This document shows positions 16,425 to 46,722 of a DNA stretch of 64,000 bases, in pieces. The translations under genes and the position numbers were made by a program. The stretch spans positions 124,001 through 188,000 of the forward strand of contig CALVED010000004.1 in NCBI GenBank assembly GCA_944326485.1. Reading direction: 5' to 3'. Positions within the stretch are counted from its first letter, which is position 1; every line of letters begins with the position of its first letter. This DNA is from Candidatus Gastranaerophilales bacterium. GTDB lineage: Bacteria; Cyanobacteriota; Vampirovibrionia; Gastranaerophilales; Gastranaerophilaceae. Below the pieces are notes generated by a model that ran no database searches, was not told the origin of the DNA, and worked only from the letters and a program-made list of their open reading frames with translations.

Positions 16425-18242
16425 ATGGGAAAATTAAAACAGATAAAATTACTTAAAAAATTTTTAGTTGGTAATTTAAAAGATTATCAAATACTTTTGT
16501 TATTATTCTTTATTAATCTTATATTTTTTTATGTTTTTTATAGTAGTGTAATGATTTTCTCTGATTCATCAAGAGAAATATATGTACCTATAGCAATGAA
16601 TAATGGAGATGTTCTTTATAAAGATATTTTTAATGTATATGCCCCATTGGGGTATCAATTAAATGCTTTTTTAATAAAAGTATTTGGTGAAAATTTAAGA
16701 ACATTTTATTTTGCAGGTTTTATAAATTCAACATTAATTTTGTTCGGATTGTTTTATATTCTAAAGTTATTTATTAAAAAAGGCTCAATATTAGTTTTTA
16801 GTATTTTGTTAGCTATAATGACTATGTGTATATATACAGTAACTCAGACTAATTATATTTTCCCTTATTCTTATTCTTTAGTTTATGCTTTAAATTCTTT
16901 TATTTGGTCATTAATTTGCCTTTTATGTTTTATAAAAAATGATAATAGATTATTTTTATATTTATCTTTTTTCTTCTATGGAATGAGTATTTGTTTTAAA
17001 TATGAGTTTATTTCTTTTGGAATCGTACTATTTTTATTTTTGATATTCAAAAAAGTAAACTTTAAAACTGTAGCTTTGTGTATTCTTTCTTTTCTTATTA
17101 TTCCTTTTATTTCTCTTTCATTTTTATTCATACAGGGGGTATCTTTTTATGACTTAAAACAAGCAATGATATACATGATAATGCTTTCAAAGGCAAAAAG
17201 TGTTAAAATTTTATATACTTATCTTGGATTTATCCCAACTATTTCTTCTATTGAAGTGTTGTTATTATATTTTATTCAAACAACATTATTTGTTTTTGTA
17301 ATATCTTTATATGTTTGTTTCTTTATAAAATTTTCTAAATTATTTTTAAGAATTAATAAGATCATTATGTTTATCTTATTTATATTATACTTATTATTAT
17401 TTTATTTCTTTATCTCTATTGTTGTGAAAAACCTTGTTATTAGTAATGCTTTTTATTTTAATTGGATTGGAGTTTTTTCTTTAATCTTGTTTTTTGTTTT
17501 ATGTATTAATCTGGTAAAAAAACATAAAGAAAAAACAGTCTGCATTCAGGATATATTGTTTTTTACGTTATTTTTATCTGTAATTTTATGTTCTTTAAAA
17601 TGTATATTCAATATAAGTTTTAACTCGTATGGAACTTATTATTTTCCATTATTATTTATATGTTCTGTTTTATATTTGTATATTTACAAAATAAACTTAG
17701 CTGAAAGAATAAAAATAAAAAAATTAATATATATTCAGCTAATTACAATACTTATCTTTCTTATCGGTACAATGTATTATGTATCAAATGTTGAAAAATT
17801 AAAGATAGTATATGGTTTTCGTTCTGTAAACGTTGATAAAGGTCCTTTAATGCCGGGTTTGGAACAAATTGAGTCTATATATGATACTGTAAATTATATA
17901 CAGAATAATACAAATAAAGATGATACTATACTTGTCTTACCTGAAGGAGCTGCAATTAATTTTCTTACCAATAGAAAATCAAATAATAAATATTATTACT
18001 TAATTCCGCCCAATATAGAAATATTTGGCGAGGAAAATATTGTTAAAGATTTAGAAAATGATTTGCCGGATTATATTGTTATTCAACCTATGTCTTATAT
18101 TAATTTTAAAGAAACATTTTTCTGTGAAAGTTTTGGACTTAAAATTTGTAATATTATTCCTAAGTATTATAAAAAACCAGTAGTTTTTGGTAATGATTTT
18201 TGGATAGCAGTCTATGAAAGAAAGAATAATGATGAAGAATAA
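16425..18242 (+). CDS. Polytopic membrane protein, GT-C glycosyltransferase-like (first of a tandem pair)
   Basis: This 605-aa protein has about 11-13 transmembrane helices and a C-terminal soluble portion. The first extracytoplasmic loop carries DSSREIYVPIAMNNG and an aspartate-containing LYKDIFNVYAPLGYQ, as in GT-C enzymes that use polyprenyl-phosphate sugars. The C-terminal domain has LVLPEGAAINFLTNRKS and YYYLIPPNIEIF. These features are shared with the next gene, so the two arose by tandem duplication. The start is an ATG at 16425; spacing to the divergent alr gene is 67 nt. Donor and acceptor are unknown. Confidence 0.75.
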   Translation: MGKLKQIKLLKKFLVGNLKDYQILLLLFFINLIFFYVFYSSVMIFSDSSREIYVPIAMNNGDVLYKDIFNVYAPLGYQLNAFLIKVFGENLRTFYFAGFINSTLILFGLFYILKLFIKKGSILVFSILLAIMTMCIYTVTQTNYIFPYSYSLVYALNSFIWSLICLLCFIKNDNRLFLYLSFFFYGMSICFKYEFISFGIVLFLFLIFKKVNFKTVALCILSFLIIPFISLSFLFIQGVSFYDLKQAMIYMIMLSKAKSVKILYTYLGFIPTISSIEVLLLYFIQTTLFVFVISLYVCFFIKFSKLFLRINKIIMFILFILYLLLFYFFISIVVKNLVISNAFYFNWIGVFSLILFFVLCINLVKKHKEKTVCIQDILFFTLFLSVILCSLKCIFNISFNSYGTYYFPLLFICSVLYLYIYKINLAERIKIKKLIYIQLITILIFLIGTMYYVSNVEKLKIVYGFRSVNVDKGPLMPGLEQIESIYDTVNYIQNNTNKDDTILVLPEGAAINFLTNRKSNNKYYYLIPPNIEIFGEENIVKDLENDLPDYIVIQPMSYINFKETFFCESFGLKICNIIPKYYKKPVVFGNDFWIAVYERKNNDEE

Positions 18243-19920
18243 ATTTGATATAATTAATATTTTTTTGATTCTATTCCTATTAGTTGTTGGGTTTATTTTT
18301 ACTTATGGACATATTACTTCAATATATTCAGATATAGGCAGAGAATTTTATATACCTTGGCAAATGAATGAAGGTAATGTTCTATATAAAGATATTTTCA
18401 ATGTATATTTCCCTTTGGGATATCAATTAAATGCATTTTTATTAAAGATTTTTTCTAATAAATTGTCTGTATTTTATTTTGCAGGATTTGTTGTTTCTTA
18501 TTTATCATTAATAGCTATATATTTTATTTCCAAACATTTTACAAATAGACTTTGTTCTTTATTGGCAGTTTTTTTAGTAATAGTTTCTTGTGTTTTTTAT
18601 CAAAGTATTTCAAATTATATTGTGCCTTATTCTTATTCGTTATTATATGCAATGTGCGCATTTTTATGGTCTTTTTTAATGTTGATTCTTTATTTAAAAA
18701 ATGAAAAGTTTAAATATTTTTTATTATCTTGTTTTTTAATGGGAATATCTTTTGCCTCTAAGTATGAGTATTGTTTATTTTTATTTGTTATCATTTTTGT
18801 TGCAATATACAAAAAAATAGAAATTAGAAAATGTTTATTATCTGTTGTAAGTTTTTTAATTGTTCCTTTATTTTCTATTTTTTTACTTTTTATACAAGGA
18901 GTTTCTTTAGAAGATATATATAAGTCTGCAAAATATATGATAGAACTATCTGATTCAAACAGTGTTAAGTATTTTTATTCTTATACTGGATTTATTCCTT
19001 CAGTTCCATCTATATTAAGATCATTGTATTGTTTTATTGAAACATTAATATTTGCAGGTATATTTTTTGTTATTCCATATTCTGTCTTTAAATACTTAAA
19101 AAAGTTTGATTTAAAAATACAAATAATAACTATTTTAGTTCTGCTCTTTATAATATTAAATGTATTAAAAAATATCTTCTTCGTTAATATTTCAATGCAT
19201 TTTGTTTTTATGGGCTATTTATCTGTTTTAATATTTTTATTAAGTTTAAAGAAAAAAAATATACTGTTCTCTATTTTGTGTATTAGTGCTTTATTATCAT
19301 CAATAAAGGTAATAGGTTCAATTGCACTTGAATTATATGGCACATTTTTTCTACCTATATTTATAGTGATTATTGTTACTTTAGTATATTCACTTAGAGA
19401 TAAAAAAGAAATTTATATTTCATTACTTTTTGTACTTTGTTCATTTATTTATCTATATCTAAATATGGATATTATTCAGATTCTTAAATATAAAGAAAAT
19501 AAAATTACAACATTGAACAATGAAGCTATATATACGAACAACAGCTATTTTTCAGAAAGATATAATAAAATTATTTCTTATATAAATGAAAAAACATCTA
19601 CAAATGATACTGTATTGGTCCTACCGGAGGGTGTTATTTTAAACTATCTTACTCAAAGAAAATCAGATAATTTCTATTATTATTTAATACCGCCAAATGT
19701 TGAAATATTTTCTCAAAATTCAATAATAAATAATTTACAACAAGAATTACCAGACTATATTATAGTTTTTAATAATAAGTATAATTGGTATAATACAGCA
19801 TCTTTTACAACTACATTCGGAAGTAAAATACAAGGATTTATTAATAATAATTATGTACTAGAGGAAGATGTTTCATCTGAATATGATAAAATATATAAGT
19901 TGAAGGGTAAAAATAAATAA
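18214..19920 (+). CDS. Polytopic membrane protein, GT-C glycosyltransferase-like (second of a tandem pair)
   Basis: This 568-aa protein is a paralogue of the preceding one. Matching segments are DIGREFYIPWQMNEG, LYKDIFNVYFPLGYQLNAF and YYYLIPPNVEIF. The conserved loop Asp in YKDIFNVY is retained in both. It overlaps the first gene by 29 nt if the ATG at 18214 is used. In-frame ATGs at 18229 and 18232 (MMKNKFD) would shorten the overlap and may be the true start. Both copies look intact, so they may have split substrates. It likely adds a sugar to a lipid-linked or cell-surface acceptor. Confidence 0.75.
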   Translation: MKERIMMKNKFDIINIFLILFLLVVGFIFTYGHITSIYSDIGREFYIPWQMNEGNVLYKDIFNVYFPLGYQLNAFLLKIFSNKLSVFYFAGFVVSYLSLIAIYFISKHFTNRLCSLLAVFLVIVSCVFYQSISNYIVPYSYSLLYAMCAFLWSFLMLILYLKNEKFKYFLLSCFLMGISFASKYEYCLFLFVIIFVAIYKKIEIRKCLLSVVSFLIVPLFSIFLLFIQGVSLEDIYKSAKYMIELSDSNSVKYFYSYTGFIPSVPSILRSLYCFIETLIFAGIFFVIPYSVFKYLKKFDLKIQIITILVLLFIILNVLKNIFFVNISMHFVFMGYLSVLIFLLSLKKKNILFSILCISALLSSIKVIGSIALELYGTFFLPIFIVIIVTLVYSLRDKKEIYISLLFVLCSFIYLYLNMDIIQILKYKENKITTLNNEAIYTNNSYFSERYNKIISYINEKTSTNDTVLVLPEGVILNYLTQRKSDNFYYYLIPPNVEIFSQNSIINNLQQELPDYIIVFNNKYNWYNTASFTTTFGSKIQGFINNNYVLEEDVSSEYDKIYKLKGKNK

Positions 19921-19933
19921 TATAGGAATAAAA

Positions 19934-20254
19934 ATGAATAAAGAAGAACAAATAAAAATAATAGAAGATATGCAAGCTGTTGTAAGTCAAATGAAGATTG
20001 ATGATTTAGAAGAGGATCCATCACTGGAAGATGAACTTTTTGAATGCTCTTGTTGCGGAAAAACAAAGTCTTTAGCAGGGTCTATCCAATATGGTAAATA
20101 TAGATTATGTAATGATTGTGTGCTTCTTGCAGAAACGGGTTTGGCTATTGGTAAATTTAAAAATGTAGATGAATTAATAAAAGCAATGGAAGATACAAGA
20201 CTGGAAGAAATGTGTGAGTTCATAAAACAAGAAGAAAAAAGAGAAAATAACTAA
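19934..20254 (+). CDS. Stand-alone ClpX-type zinc-finger protein
   Basis: This 106-aa protein has an acidic helical N-terminus. It then has a C4 zinc finger, C38-x2-C41 (CSCC) and C59-x2-C62 (CNDC), 17 residues apart, close to the ClpX N-terminal zinc-binding domain. No AAA+ domain follows. The C-terminus is a charged helix. TAGGAA lies upstream of the ATG. The matrixin gene starts 1 nt after its stop, so the two are coupled. In ClpX this domain binds substrates and adaptors, so a role as adaptor or inhibitor for the neighbouring protease is a testable inference. Confidence 0.75.
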   Translation: MNKEEQIKIIEDMQAVVSQMKIDDLEEDPSLEDELFECSCCGKTKSLAGSIQYGKYRLCNDCVLLAETGLAIGKFKNVDELIKAMEDTRLEEMCEFIKQEEKRENN

Positions 20255-20255
20255 A

Positions 20256-21035
20256 ATGCATAGATTAACATATTTACAGCAACATTTAAAAAACGGTAAG
20301 TTAATAAGGTGGCCATCTCAGTGTTTTCCTTTAAATGTTTATATTGCCCCTTGCACCTGGTATTCTATGAGTGAAGCTGATAGATTCTTTTATAAAAGAA
20401 TGGTAATAGATGCATTAAATGAGTGGGAAAGAGTTGGTGCTGGTAAATTTTCTTTTAATATAATTGAGTCATTACACGATTCACAGATGAATGTTGAATG
20501 GCGACGAGTTGAAAGAAAATCTTTGGGTAATTGCTCTTTTAATTATGATAATGAATCAAGGCTATATTCTGCTGAGGTTTCAATAGGTATATCAGATGGA
20601 ATAATACATAGAAAATATATGGATGAAAATGAAGTATATCATACTATATTGCATGAGATAGGGCATGCTTTGGGACTGGGACATTCTACAAATCCTAATG
20701 ATATTATGTATACTCCTCATCAATATGGAGTTGTAAAATTATCTCAGAGAGATATAAATTCTGTTAGATGGTTATATTCTCTTCCATATGGGACATCGGT
20801 AAAGAGTTTAAATAGTACTTATTCCCTTAACTATAATAATATCGATGATATAATTATGAAAATTGTTTCGGGAGATGTAGAATCTGAATTTCAGAAGACA
20901 TTAAATAGTATAAAAATACCAAGAAGAAATTTAGAAGAAGAACAAGAAAAATTGGCTCAAATGAAAAAGTTTCAAATGTCTATACAAAATATAAAACTTC
21001 CGAAAGAAATTGCTGATAAGTTTAAAGAACGATAG
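20256..21035 (+). CDS. Matrixin-type zinc metalloprotease
   Basis: This 259-aa metzincin has the zinc-binding motif HEIGHALGLGH (H133, E134, H137, H143) and the Met-turn M151 in NDIMYTP. The catalytic domain spans about residues 20-175. About 80 residues of charged helix follow (RRNLEEEQEKLAQMKK). No signal peptide or pro-domain cysteine switch is evident: the start MHRLTYLQQH is not hydrophobic. It may therefore be cytoplasmic or exported by another route. It follows the zinc-finger gene by 1 nt. The function of this class in bacteria is poorly defined. Confidence 0.85.
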   Translation: MHRLTYLQQHLKNGKLIRWPSQCFPLNVYIAPCTWYSMSEADRFFYKRMVIDALNEWERVGAGKFSFNIIESLHDSQMNVEWRRVERKSLGNCSFNYDNESRLYSAEVSIGISDGIIHRKYMDENEVYHTILHEIGHALGLGHSTNPNDIMYTPHQYGVVKLSQRDINSVRWLYSLPYGTSVKSLNSTYSLNYNNIDDIIMKIVSGDVESEFQKTLNSIKIPRRNLEEEQEKLAQMKKFQMSIQNIKLPKEIADKFKER

Positions 21036-21078: not shown

Positions 21079-21416
21079 AAAGAGAGCAGACGAACAATCG
21101 CGTATAAGAAAACTTATATGAGGAAAGTCCGGACACCTTAGGGCAGAACGACGGATAACATCCGCCGAGGGCGACCTTAGGACTAGTGCCACAGAAAAGT
21201 AAACAACCTTTTTAGGTTCAGGTGCAACGGTAGTGTAAAAGACTACCAGAGGTATTGAGAAATACCTGCTCGGTAAACTCCGTTCGGGTGCAAGATTGAC
21301 TCAAAGGTTAAGGTGACCCGCCGTCTTTGGAAAAATCGCCGGAGGTGCAAGGTAACTTGCATCCCAGACAGATGATTGTTTAGAAACAGAATCCGGCTTA
21401 TGACCTGCTCTCTTTT
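21079..21416 (+). ncRNA. rnpB: RNase P RNA (type A)
   Basis: The ribozyme RNA that trims tRNA 5' leaders. The terminal stem P1 pairs AAGAGAGCAG (from about 21080) with CTGCTCTCTT (21405-21414). The universally conserved core is present: GAGGAAAGTCCGGAC at 21120 and GCCACAGAAA at 21188-21197. The 3' part has CCCAGACAGATGATTG, completing P4. Size, about 338 nt, is normal for type A. Its 3' end overlaps the stop codon of the convergent gene at 21415 by about 2 nt. A -10-like TAATAAT lies just before the 5' end. Confidence 0.95.
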
Positions 21417-22308
21417 AACCTAATATAATACCGTGATTTGCCATGTAATTAAGAAGCTTTTCATTTGCTTCTTTATTTTCGTTATAATCAGGGTAATTTT
21501 TCATTGCAAGTTCACATATATCAATTTTTTTAGTTGCATCTTCCGGATTTATTCTTGGAAGCTTTGCTGTACTTGTTGTTAAATCAAGTTTTCTTTTTTC
21601 ATCTAATCTTGATTGAACTTTAGGATAGTTTGATGCATAAATCTGACTTGCAGAAGCTCTATCTGTTAATGCTGCATAAGATGCTTCAAGCAAATATCTT
21701 TTAACAGCTTCTTCTACATCAGCAATAGCTTTATGTGCTTTTTGAACAAGTGTTTCTTCACCTAAATCAACGCTGTCAGAACGTCCAATTACTTCCATAA
21801 TTTGATATTTTTTCTCTAAAAGTTTTTTATGTAGTTCAAATCCTGCTTTTACAGTATATGGTAGTGATGGATTTAAGGAAATAAATGATGTCATACCTAT
21901 CATTCTGTTTAGATTTGAATCTGCATATAAAAGCAGTGGTTCGCAAGGATAATCTCTATCATCTGGATTTATTGAAACATTATATTGTTTAAATATTGAT
22001 GCTGTAAAATTTTGAACTTCAGGTGGTTTTTCTCTATATTCCAGTCTTGGAAGACCTGCATAACCTTTTCTTATAAAACAATCTTGATTTGGATAATCTT
22101 GTGCGATTTCATTTAATAATAATGCGTCTTTTTTCAAAAATTTAGCAGGTAGTCCTGATTCTGCTACTTCACCTAAATCGACGATGTCTTCAACATAAAT
22201 TCCTTTAAATGACACATTATTTTTATTTCTTTGGTTATTTGTATTGTTCGGAGAGTTTGTCTTACTTTTTACTTGGTTGAATACATTTGAAATTGCAGAA
22301 ATTTTCAT
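21415..22308 (-). CDS. Hypothetical lineage-type protein (MKISAI...SFKG)
   Basis: This 297-aa protein is of unknown family. It starts MKISAISNVFNQ. After an Asn-rich linker it has NVSFKGIYVED near residue 35, a pattern recurring in several unknowns of this window. The rest is soluble and mixed helical, with no catalytic motif I can name (SFISLNPSLPYTVKAGFELH; AKLPRINPEDATKK). It ends against the 3' end of the RNase P RNA, so one of the two transcripts must terminate inside the other gene. Its upstream neighbour is divergent and also carries the tag. Function unknown. Confidence 0.7.
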   Translation of the reverse strand: MKISAISNVFNQVKSKTNSPNNTNNQRNKNNVSFKGIYVEDIVDLGEVAESGLPAKFLKKDALLLNEIAQDYPNQDCFIRKGYAGLPRLEYREKPPEVQNFTASIFKQYNVSINPDDRDYPCEPLLLYADSNLNRMIGMTSFISLNPSLPYTVKAGFELHKKLLEKKYQIMEVIGRSDSVDLGEETLVQKAHKAIADVEEAVKRYLLEASYAALTDRASASQIYASNYPKVQSRLDEKRKLDLTTSTAKLPRINPEDATKKIDICELAMKNYPDYNENKEANEKLLNYMANHGIILG

Positions 22309-22462: not shown

Positions 22463-23185
22463 ATGAAAATAAGTTCATCTTTCAATAATATAGATAGTAA
22501 ACAATCCTATCAATCATTTAAAGGTGTTCCTCCTAATCCCAAATATATTCCTGAAATAATTGGCAAATTGGGAAAAGTTGCTGGAGAATACATAAATACA
22601 CCAGAGCAAAAATTGTTTCTGGCAACTTCTGCATTAATGTTTCAACCTTTAATTGATTTAAAATATGCAAAAGAAGATCAAAATGTTGATTCTGCAATAA
22701 AATCAGCATCTAAAGCTATGGCTGGCGGCTTTACAGGGGTATTAATAAGAGCAACTTTTCTAAAAATTACTAATCATTTTATCGGCTTTCAAAAACATAA
22801 CAAATTGAACAAATTATTCTTCCCAGACACAGCTATTAGACTGAAAGAAGTTCGTCCTGAAATTGCAAAACTTAGAATGAAACAATATAGTCAAACTTTA
22901 GGTACACTTTTTGCTGTTTTATTTATGATTCTGTTCTCAAATTCAAATGTTGATGTTCCTTTAACAAGTGATCTGCAAGATTTAATTTCAGGTGTTGTTA
23001 AAGATAAGAAAAGCTGGTTAACATCTTTAAATGATGTTAAAAATAATAGGTGTAAAAAAATAGTAAATTGGTTTAAACGCAAAAAAGATATCTTAACTAA
23101 AATAAATAATAAAACAAAAAATGTTATTAAAGTAATTAGTGAAGATGATTCAGCTGCACATAAAAAAGAGGAGTCTAAGAAATGA
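22463..23185 (+). CDS. Hypothetical lineage-type protein with membrane segments
   Basis: This 240-aa protein begins MKISSSFNNIDSKQSYQSFKG, so the MKIS...FKG pattern is complete within 21 residues. A helix-rich middle follows, with hydrophobic stretches around residues 50-62 (LFLATSALMFQPL) and 147-160 (GTLFAVLFMILFSN), and a Lys-rich C-terminal tail. The next gene overlaps it by 4 nt (ATGA), so the products are probably made together. The general plan, with a GxxxRA-like helix after a conserved PxxDxxxA, resembles the protein at 51715. Function unknown. Confidence 0.7.
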   Translation: MKISSSFNNIDSKQSYQSFKGVPPNPKYIPEIIGKLGKVAGEYINTPEQKLFLATSALMFQPLIDLKYAKEDQNVDSAIKSASKAMAGGFTGVLIRATFLKITNHFIGFQKHNKLNKLFFPDTAIRLKEVRPEIAKLRMKQYSQTLGTLFAVLFMILFSNSNVDVPLTSDLQDLISGVVKDKKSWLTSLNDVKNNRCKKIVNWFKRKKDILTKINNKTKNVIKVISEDDSAAHKKEESKK

Positions 23186-44403: not shown

Positions 44404-44808
44404 CTACTTTCTATCTAAGTATTGTTGTAAAATTATGCAGGCACTTTTTAAATCTACTAATTTTTTATCTTTTGTATATTTTCTTCCTGTTTGGGCGAGA
44501 ATATATTCAGCCTGTTTGCTTGTTAATCTTTCATCTTCAAAAATAATTTTATATTCACTTTTAAAATTATCAGCAAATGATATACAATCTTGAGCTTGTT
44601 CTCCTATTGAATTGTTCATATGTTTAGGAAGTCCTGCTACAATAATTTTAATATTGTTATTTTGACAAATTTTTTTGATTTTTGCAATTGCTTCACTCTC
44701 TGGCTCTCTGGCTATTGTTTCAACGGGTTGAGCTATAATGCCAAGAGCGTCACTCATTGCTATACCTATCCTTTTTTTTCCTATGTCTAAACCAAGTATT
44801 CTATTCAT
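44404..44808 (-). CDS. ruvX: Putative pre-16S rRNA nuclease / Holliday junction resolvase YqgF (RuvX)
   Basis: This 134-aa RNase-H-fold protein begins MNRILGLDIGKKRIGIAMSD, with the catalytic Asp in LDIG. It has VAGLPKHMNNSIG and the FEDERLTSKQAE segment, both conserved in YqgF. The family is proposed to trim pre-16S rRNA or act on Holliday junctions; the rRNA role has the better genetic support. It overlaps the 545-aa upstream gene by 8 nt and precedes the DUF1292 gene by 14 nt. Confidence 0.94.
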   Translation of the reverse strand: MNRILGLDIGKKRIGIAMSDALGIIAQPVETIAREPESEAIAKIKKICQNNNIKIIVAGLPKHMNNSIGEQAQDCISFADNFKSEYKIIFEDERLTSKQAEYILAQTGRKYTKDKKLVDLKSACIILQQYLDRK

Positions 44809-46438
44809 AAATCCAATTCTTTTTTAATAAATTTATTATTTTATCAATTTTTTTTGTATCATAATTTTCTTTTTGTATTTGTTTCTTTCTGAATATGTTT
44901 GTTGTAAGTACATTTTCTTTTGATAGTTCTCTTTTTGCAATAAAGGAATTAAATATGCTTCTTTGTAGTATTACAAATTTGAATATTTGAAAATTATCAT
45001 TATTTGTTAAAATTGTATAAAATAACTTTGCATCATCTTTTTTATTATTTTCATATAATAAATATATGCATTGAGTTATTCTTTCTTTCCATGAGTTTAT
45101 TGTTTTTTCTTCAAAAACAATATTAATATTATCTTTAACTATCTTATTTATGTAATCAATCGTTATGTTGTCTTGTTTATATATTTTATTTATTATTTCA
45201 TCTAAAACTTTATTTTCAGATGGTTTTATATACCATCTGAATGTATATTCTTTTGTAAGAAGAGATAATATTTTATCTTTTGTTGTTGTTATTTTTTCGA
45301 TGTTATTTTCAATAATTTCTTCAATAGAATTGGATAATGGTAAAATATCTTTAGTAAGAACATCCCAACATATAAATTCATAAGGAAATGTTCTTTTGTT
45401 TTTAATGGTAAGTTCTACAGCATTGTTAATCCTTGTTTTAATGTATTGCGGTGAAACTTTATATTTACCTTCAGATTGATAGAACTTACTTATTACCTTT
45501 GTTAATTCATTTTGTGAAATATTAAAGAAACCAAAACAATCTATAACTCCTAGAATATCATTAATAACTACAGCTGAAAGAGAAAATTTATTTTTATCAT
45601 TTATTCTTGAAATTAATAAAGCCTGATTTCCATTTCCGTCAGGAATTGTTGTAAAAAATTCTGCAGGTTTTGAGTTTTTGATAATATTATAAAAATACTC
45701 TTCTGCTTTATTTTCATTAGCTCCTGAAAATCTTAATTTTTTTAAACCGGTACTACAAGCTGATATTATTTCTTTGTTATCACTAGTTTTTATTAAATAA
45801 TTGAATGGGGCAATTGCTAATGAAGATTTTGAATTTATTAATATTTCTATAATTTTTAATTTTAATTTGTCATCAAAATCAGAATATAAAATAGGATAAA
45901 TAATATTTGCAAGAGAATCGCCTTTATAGTCAATTTCTAATGATTGTATCAGAAGATTTCTATCATTTTCAGGAACTGCAGATACAAAGTCTAAAAAATC
46001 GAGCATAGCTTCAGGATTAAATATAGCTTTTTCCAGTAATTTTTTAGTATCTGTATCAAGTACCTCCTGAGGATTATCAAAATATTGCGGTAATGTATTA
46101 TAATCAAAATCATTTCCTGCAATTCTTAGTAATTGTACAAGTTTGTATTTTGACTCATCAGAATAATTATTTGATTTTAAAATATCAAAAACTTTTTCTT
46201 GTATGTAATTAATATCAATTAGTTCCTTAAGAAGACATCCTGAAAAGGTATATTCATTTTCATCCATTTTAATATATTCTTTGATAAATACATCAAAAAG
46301 TGAATGTCTATCTTCAATTTGTCTTAATTCTTCAATAAAAAAATTAAGTTTTTTTTCGTTTAGTTCTTTAGATGTTTTAATTGCTGAAATAATCGATAAA
46401 ACTTTAGCTCTTATTTGAAGTTTAGATAATTGAGTCAT
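44801..46438 (-). CDS. Hypothetical 545-aa helical repeat-like protein
   Basis: This soluble 545-aa protein is largely helical. Parts look like degenerate HEAT units (KLKLKIIEILINSKSSLAIAPF; NKEIISACSTGLKKLRF), followed by a globular middle with beta strands (LLISRINDKNKFSLSAVVI). No catalytic motif or membrane segment stands out. It shares one base with the zinc-finger gene upstream (its ATG overlaps that stop) and overlaps ruvX by 8 nt. The three are therefore translated as a unit. I do not recognise the family. Confidence 0.75.
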   Translation of the reverse strand: MTQLSKLQIRAKVLSIISAIKTSKELNEKKLNFFIEELRQIEDRHSLFDVFIKEYIKMDENEYTFSGCLLKELIDINYIQEKVFDILKSNNYSDESKYKLVQLLRIAGNDFDYNTLPQYFDNPQEVLDTDTKKLLEKAIFNPEAMLDFLDFVSAVPENDRNLLIQSLEIDYKGDSLANIIYPILYSDFDDKLKLKIIEILINSKSSLAIAPFNYLIKTSDNKEIISACSTGLKKLRFSGANENKAEEYFYNIIKNSKPAEFFTTIPDGNGNQALLISRINDKNKFSLSAVVINDILGVIDCFGFFNISQNELTKVISKFYQSEGKYKVSPQYIKTRINNAVELTIKNKRTFPYEFICWDVLTKDILPLSNSIEEIIENNIEKITTTKDKILSLLTKEYTFRWYIKPSENKVLDEIINKIYKQDNITIDYINKIVKDNINIVFEEKTINSWKERITQCIYLLYENNKKDDAKLFYTILTNNDNFQIFKFVILQRSIFNSFIAKRELSKENVLTTNIFRKKQIQKENYDTKKIDKIINLLKKNWIYE

Positions 46439-46722
46439 TATTTGATTTTACTCCAGAAAATATCTAGAATTTTTTGTGCTTCACTTGAAGGTAGTTTATC
46501 TTCTAATATAAGATATTGAACGGCAATCATAGTGCATTCTGAACAAATATTGACTCCAGGACCTTGTACCATTTTTACAACTTGGGTATTTGGTCTTCCG
46601 CAAAAGCTACAATAAACCGGCTCCGGAGTATTATTTTTTTCTTCTTTTAATTGCTCTATTTGTTTTTCTTTTGGCTTGTGCCTTGCACTCTTTAAAGATA
46701 CTATTTTTTCTGAATCGCTCAT
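46438..46722 (-). CDS. Stand-alone ClpX-type zinc-finger protein (second copy)
   Basis: This 94-aa protein has a basic N-terminus. Its C4 zinc finger CSFC-x18-CSEC (in VYCSFCGRPNTQ and GPGVNICSECTMIA) matches the ClpX zinc-binding domain in both cysteine spacing and the GP-x-V-x-I-C-x-EC tail. No AAA+ domain is present and the frame ends normally. It heads the run containing the 545-aa protein and ruvX. Like the gene at 19934 it may be an adaptor or dimerisation module. That is inference. Confidence 0.8.
   Translation of the reverse strand: MSDSEKIVSLKSARHKPKEKQIEQLKEEKNNTPEPVYCSFCGRPNTQVVKMVQGPGVNICSECTMIAVQYLILEDKLPSSEAQKILDIFWSKIK

What the first reader, a model, noticed from the sequence alone, without database searches (positions are those of the whole stretch)
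19934..21035. Coupled stand-alone ClpX-type zinc finger and signal-less matrixin
A 106-aa protein carrying only a ClpX-like C4 zinc finger precedes, by 1 nt, a metzincin with HEIGHALGLGH and a Met-turn. The protease lacks an obvious signal peptide, which is unusual for matrixins. In ClpX this domain dimerises and binds substrates and adaptors. The pair might be a protease with its adaptor or inhibitor, or a cytoplasmic proteolysis module.
Basis: partly seen in the sequence, partly recalled or inferred. Interest (0 to 1): 0.6.

Follow-up and report, generated by a model that had tools for sequence, protein, structure and literature searches.

The report
Cytoplasmic matrixin beside zinc-finger gene
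A gut relative of the cyanobacteria keeps a collagenase-type protease inside its cell, and in this genus its gene sits directly behind a small zinc-finger gene, but most relatives keep the two genes far apart, so they are probably not obligatory partners.

Summary
The two genes exist as described: a 106-aa C4 zinc-finger protein (19934-20254) and, 1 nt later, a 259-aa matrixin (20256-21035) with HEIGHALGLGH and a Met-turn. The matrixin has no signal peptide. Only 10 in-frame codons lie upstream, several congeners have none, and the whole family lacks one. It is a new variant: a catalytically intact, single-copy matrixin predicted to be cytoplasmic, core to Gastranaerophilales and also present in class-level outgroups.

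The pairing claim holds only locally. All 38 genus genomes with both genes have them adjacent (spacing usually -1 to +4 nt), as do a few nearby genera, next to alr. Elsewhere in the order both are usually present but far apart: the protease faces ybaB-recR, the finger follows pdxJ or guaB. No excess co-evolution was found, and AlphaFold gave no confident interface.

'ClpX-type' is weak: no family member reaches Pfam's ClpX-finger cut-off. The real stand-alone ClpX finger in this window is a different gene (46438-46722), coupled to an unknown ~545-aa protein across the order.

Most likely: two independent cytoplasmic core genes that share an operon in this lineage; the matrixin is an ATP-independent intracellular peptidase. 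An adaptor or inhibitor relationship is possible but unsupported.

The parts
19934..20254 (+). 106-aa C4 zinc-finger protein (ZF), Gastranaerophilales-specific family; predicted helix 3-27, treble-clef-like zinc site 35-62, helices 60-72 and 78-104
20045..20119 (+). C4 zinc site CSCC-x17-CNDC; C38, C41, C59 and C62 invariant in 31 diverse homologues
   Evidence: direct reading
20252..20258 (+). coupled junction TAAAATG (stop, 1 nt, start); spacing usually -1 to +4 nt in the genus, commonly 0
20256..21035 (+). 259-aa signal-less matrixin (MX), predicted cytoplasmic metzincin protease
20652..20684 (+). HEIGHALGLGH zinc-binding catalytic motif (aa 133-143), H133 E134 G136 H137 G140 H143 invariant
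   Evidence: direct reading
20700..20708 (+). Met-turn DIM (aa 149-151), D149 and M151 invariant
   Evidence: direct reading
20793..21032 (+). C-terminal helical extension (aa 180-259) beyond the matrixin domain, no Pfam match over cut-off

Best explanation
The window encodes two small, independent cytoplasmic core genes of the Gastranaerophilales that share a translationally coupled operon in this genus and a few near genera. The second gene is a catalytically intact, matrixin-fold metzincin without a signal peptide. It most likely works as an ATP-independent intracellular zinc endopeptidase on specific cytosolic substrates, with a helical C-terminal extension that probably helps choose them. 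The first is an order-specific C4 treble-clef-like protein that most likely binds protein or nucleic acid in a separate process. Shown by computation: the genes, the motifs, purifying selection, the fold, the absence of a signal peptide, the distribution and the separate loci elsewhere. Inferred: cytoplasmic location, proteolytic activity, the substrate role of the C-terminal extension, and the binding role of the finger.
For: MX: PF00413 over cut-off in the members checked and matched by all 28 family members; Foldseek best hits are karilysin and MMP catalytic domains (probability 1.00, E 6e-8); all catalytic residues invariant in 28 diverse homologues; no upstream room for a signal peptide; one clear copy per genome in most of the order, plus homologues in class-level outgroups. 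ZF: single copy in 129 of 131 order genomes sampled and none outside the order, invariant C4. Independence: most genera have MX divergent from ybaB-recR and ZF after pdxJ or beside guaB; MX without ZF in the 99%-complete G063, G070 and G174, also with a profile search, and ZF without the orthologous MX in G201 and G268; divergence correlation ZF-MX 0.76 is not above ZF-RecR 0.79. Coupling in the genus: 38 of 38 adjacent, spacing -1 to +4 nt in 36 of 37 distinct junctions measured, two of them from other genera.
Against: Tight stop-start coupling kept across all 38 congeners is what a protein pair with fixed stoichiometry would show. The paired arrangement, with alr next to it, occurs in g1, g13, g19, g31 and g61, so it is not a one-genome accident. 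The few genomes lacking one gene are near the number expected from incomplete assemblies. Export without a signal peptide is not excluded, and no activity has been measured.
Confidence: 0.6

Rival explanations
1. ZF is a dedicated partner of MX (adaptor, chaperone or inhibitor): it is made first and, by translational coupling, in fixed ratio, then binds MX to deliver substrates or keep it latent in the cytosol.
For: 38 of 38 adjacency in the genus with -1 to +4 nt spacing; pair also in g13, g19, g31 and g61; a cytosolic protease would need control (inference).
Against: Separate loci in most of the order; MX family older and wider than ZF; some genomes have one without the other; no excess co-evolution; no confident placement in the joint model (pTM 0.62, both parts well folded); no fused ORF in the 325 sequences held.
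Confidence: 0.17
2. ZF is a diverged copy of the ClpX zinc-binding domain that docks on ClpX or its adaptors and tunes ClpXP; the matrixin next door is incidental.
For: Weak PF06689 matches aligned on the four cysteines; hhalign aligns the C4 positions; predicted topology, with the second CxxC at the start of a helix, resembles a treble clef. In E. coli the free ClpX ZBD blocks RssB-dependent degradation (PMC7226468).
Against: 0 of 31 members reach the PF06689 cut-off; hhalign probability 18.7%; no ClpX among PDB profile or Foldseek hits; long N- and C-terminal helices absent from the ClpX domain. Every one of the 58 relatives already has ClpX or a bona fide stand-alone ClpX finger at another locus, usually both.
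Confidence: 0.12
3. MX is not a working protease: like CarG, an archaemetzincin-fold subunit of a transcription regulator, it uses the metzincin fold as a structural or regulatory scaffold, perhaps with ZF.
For: CarG and native archaemetzincins show that metzincins without an export role can lack activity (PMC3427221). Weak helix-turn-helix-like matches (E 0.02-0.06) in the C-terminal module of one to two members only.
Against: The catalytic Glu and all three His are invariant in 28 of 28, unlike CarG, in which the Glu is replaced.
Confidence: 0.11

Closest known systems
Matrixins / MMP family (PF00413, MEROPS M10), e.g. bacterial karilysin
   Same: Catalytic fold, HExxHxxGxxH, Met-turn, matrixin Pfam score over cut-off
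   Different: No signal peptide, no pro-peptide seen, no MMP-type HGD...H...H loop with structural zinc and calcium sites by direct reading of the alignment, extra helical C-terminus, core single-copy gene
Archaemetzincins (M54, AmzA)
   Same: Metzincin; a Cys4 zinc element accompanies the catalytic domain
   Different: In AmzA the Cys4 is in the same chain (HEXXHXXGXXHCX4CXMX17CXXC, PMC3427221); MX lacks it (H143 followed by S, no C4), and M54 is under cut-off (19.3 vs 24.4 bits)
ClpX zinc-binding domain (PF06689)
   Same: CxxC-x17/18-CxxC order and a helix beginning at the second CxxC
   Different: Below the Pfam cut-off in all members, extra flanking helices, no profile or fold match; the window has a different gene (46438-46722) that is a true member
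Membrane-anchored matrixin-TPR protein of the same genome (626 aa, contig C8)
   Same: PF00413 domain
   Different: Has a hydrophobic membrane segment before the protease domain plus TPR-like repeats; MX has neither

Membership tests
Matrixin (PF00413 / M10) | HExxHxxGxxH zinc motif with catalytic Glu | tested here: met
   invariant in 28 homologues
Matrixin (PF00413 / M10) | Met-turn after the zinc motif | tested here: met
   D149-x-M151 invariant
Matrixin (PF00413 / M10) | Pfam gathering score | tested here: met
   46.9 vs 24 bits; 30.0 for a class-level outgroup member
Matrixin (PF00413 / M10) | MMP catalytic-domain fold | tested here: met
   Foldseek to karilysin and MMPs, probability 1.00
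Secreted matrixin | signal peptide or membrane anchor | tested here: not met
Matrixin (PF00413 / M10) | proteolytic activity | not testable with these tools
   needs purified protein
Archaemetzincin (M54) | HCX4CXMX17CXXC after HEXXHXXGXX | tested here: not met
   H143 is followed by Ser, no such cysteines; PF07998 19.3 vs 24.4 bits
ClpX C4 finger (PF06689) | Pfam gathering score | tested here: not met
   best member 19.3 vs 27 bits, 0 of 31 reach it
ClpX C4 finger (PF06689) | two CxxC pairs 17-18 residues apart | tested here: met
   C38/C41 and C59/C62 invariant
ClpX C4 finger (PF06689) | profile or fold similarity to ClpX ZBD | tested here: inconclusive
   hhalign 18.7% aligned on the cysteines; no ClpX hit by Foldseek, which is weak on such small domains
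ClpX C4 finger (PF06689) | dimerisation and binding of adaptors or substrates | not testable with these tools
   biochemistry
Conserved protease-partner gene pair | genes are neighbours across relatives | tested here: inconclusive
   38 of 38 in the genus; 2 of 18 other genomes in the family and 1 of 22 elsewhere in the order in the first sample; G338 in the wider sample

The most novel reading that the evidence does not exclude
Vampirovibrionia use a matrixin as a housekeeping intracellular protease, and in one lineage a separate C4 zinc protein was recruited into its operon as its regulator: a two-chain counterpart of the archaemetzincin arrangement, in which the Cys4 zinc element and the metzincin are in one chain.
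Probability: 0.14. Interest if true: 0.65.

Novelty: new variant of a known kind. Interest (0 to 1): 0.4.

Why it matters
Matrixins are usually thought of as exported or membrane-bound enzymes (general knowledge). A single-copy matrixin without an export signal, conserved through a whole order of gut bacteria and into class-level outgroups, implies a basic intracellular role for this fold. It also raises how the cell keeps a metzincin from damaging its own proteins. The finger-protease pairing is a lineage-specific clue rather than the rule. The better candidate for a conserved stand-alone ClpX-finger module is another operon in the same window.

Tried and rejected
Alternative upstream start with a signal peptide: rejected. 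Hydrophobic in-frame stretches upstream of MX in L118 and L216 lie in the intergenic space facing ybaB and differ between close relatives. ZF as a PF06689 member: rejected by the cut-off. ZF among phage genes: no tblastn hit. ZF-MX fusion proteins: none in 325 sequences held. Mirror-tree co-evolution: no signal above RecR. Joint AlphaFold model, made from a congener (L007) whose ZF stop is followed in frame by the MX start, with the stop read as Gly: both parts confident, relative placement not (pTM 0.62, about what MX alone would give by my estimate). The 1-residue linker and shallow paired alignment limit that test. Paper searches found nothing on a stand-alone ClpX finger or a cytoplasmic matrixin of this kind. 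HTH/IF2_N-like hits in the MX C-terminus are sub-threshold and in one or two members only. The tree label for L025 ('other') is an artefact of the ORF-overlap rule; G003 is paired by coordinates.

Full report
What is there. The window lies in a 1.9-Mb genome (97% complete, 15 contigs). Its genus contains a genome matching the record 'Candidatus Avigastranaerophilus faecigallinarum' (L152 has the same 3012-nt contig as G011:C132), and its named relatives are Candidatus Gastranaerophilales. ZF (106 aa) ends TAA, one base follows, then the ATG of MX (259 aa). MX scores 46.9 bits on PF00413 (cut-off 24). ZF scores 19.3 bits on PF06689 (cut-off 27). RNase P RNA starts 47 nt after MX. Within the genus both genes evolve under purifying selection, with median dN/dS about 0.07 (ZF) and 0.10 (MX) where dS is defined.

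No signal peptide. The in-frame stop is 10 codons above the MX ATG, and several congeners have no in-frame codon at all between the ZF stop and the MX start. The N-terminus is hydrophilic (0.69 against 2.4-3.1 for secreted and membrane controls). The alignment of MX across the class starts at the same place, with the conserved segment TYLxxxLKxGxxxRWPxxxxPLxVYIAP. The genome's other matrixin is a 626-aa protein with a hydrophobic membrane segment before the matrixin domain and TPR-like repeats after it, so the two differ in predicted location.

What MX is. In 28 diverse members the zinc motif, catalytic Glu, Met-turn and a further Cys (C93) are invariant. The AlphaFold model is confident over the catalytic domain (most blocks above 90) and its nearest solved structures are karilysin and MMP catalytic domains. 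By direct reading, MX lacks the MMP loop that holds the structural zinc and calcium. A helical extension (aa 180-259) follows the domain, without a Pfam match over cut-off. Nearly every genome of the order has one clear copy, and the family continues in class-level outgroups, in two of which it lies directly upstream of rsmH.

What ZF is. A family restricted to the order (129 of 131 order genomes in the phylum sample, none outside), with C38, C41, C59 and C62 invariant. The model (pLDDT 88) has a long N-terminal helix, a four-strand zinc site with the second CxxC at the head of a helix, and a long C-terminal helix. That is treble-clef-like, but no statistical test ties it to ClpX: no member reaches the PF06689 cut-off, hhalign probability is 18.7% although the cysteines align, and neither the PDB profile search nor Foldseek returns ClpX.

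Are they a pair? In the genus, 38 of 38 genomes with both genes have them adjacent and co-directional. In 36 of 37 distinct junctions spacing is -1 to +4 nt, most often 0 (the exception, L057, is at a contig end). Outside, the rule fails. In most genera MX is divergent from ybaB-recR, and ZF follows murT-pdxJ, or neighbours guaB, or faces alr. Adjacency reappears only in g13 (G052), g19 (G058), g31 (G072), g61 (G338) and the named record L197. In all of these but L197, where it is not confirmed, alr lies beside the pair. The shared flank argues for one old arrangement rather than repeated invention, but the protein tree places the paired lineages apart, so loss, transfer or contamination (G072 carries two copies of each gene, 4% contamination) cannot be separated. 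MX persists without ZF in three 99%-complete genomes and in the outgroups. ZF persists without the orthologous MX in two 99%-complete genomes. These few cases are near what assembly gaps would give.

Tests of interaction. Divergence rates of ZF and MX correlate at 0.76, no more than ZF with RecR at 0.79. A joint model from L007, where the ZF stop is followed in frame by the MX start, gives two well-folded parts (mean pLDDT 89) and pTM 0.62, about the value expected if only MX is placed (the expectation is my estimate). This is absence of support, not disproof.

Comparison. MX meets every sequence and fold criterion of matrixins tested and fails only the export signal expected of secreted ones. 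Archaemetzincins are the closest analogue in spirit: metzincins with an in-chain Cys4 zinc element and, for the enzymes studied there, no activity in the assays tried (PMC3427221); MX lacks their cysteine motif. The ClpX zinc-binding domain dimerises and docks adaptors, and the free domain blocks adaptor-dependent degradation (PMC7226468), but ZF does not pass as a member.

The better ClpX-finger candidate. All 58 relatives searched have at least one PF06689 match over cut-off, and most have exactly two: ClpX and a short stand-alone protein. The latter is window 46438-46722. Across the order loci examined it is followed on the same strand, usually within about 60 nt or overlapping, by a 545-600-aa protein; the window's copy of that protein has no Pfam match.

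Verdict. Observation confirmed; interpretation partly supported. The new element is the order-wide signal-less matrixin; the pairing is lineage-specific.

Noticed in passing
window 46438-46722 (-) and 44801-46438 (-): A true stand-alone ClpX C4 finger (94 aa, 51-52 bits vs cut-off 27) overlapping by 1 nt a 545-aa protein with no Pfam match, followed by a RuvX/YqgF-like gene. The finger and the long protein are neighbours in all order loci examined.
   Followed up: partly
window 16425-18242 and 18214-19920 (+): Two similar, overlapping multi-pass membrane proteins; the second matches PMT_2. ZF starts 13 nt after the second, so all four genes may be one transcription unit here; in several congeners alr lies there instead.
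   Followed up: partly
window 21082-21416 (+): Bacterial class A RNase P RNA starts 47 nt after the matrixin stop.
   Followed up: no
G000 contig C8 (L139:739-2619): Second matrixin of the genome: 626 aa, hydrophobic membrane segment, matrixin domain, TPR-like repeats. Similar long proteins occur in most relatives.
   Followed up: partly
loci L099-L128 and others: MX is divergent from ybaB/ebfC-recR in most genera of the order; in class outgroups L135 and L136 it lies directly upstream of rsmH (mraW). The reason for either conserved context is unknown.
   Followed up: partly
window 21415-22308 (-) and 22463-23185 (+): Two proteins of unknown function share a short N-terminal SFKG motif (NNVSFKGI / SYQSFKGV), possibly a sorting or localisation tag.
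   Followed up: no
L116, L118, L212, L216, L219 upstream of MX: In-frame residues (L)LYNKNM just before the MX start suggest a conserved TATAAT-like stretch a few bases before the ATG, as in leaderless mRNAs. Not checked at DNA level.
   Followed up: no
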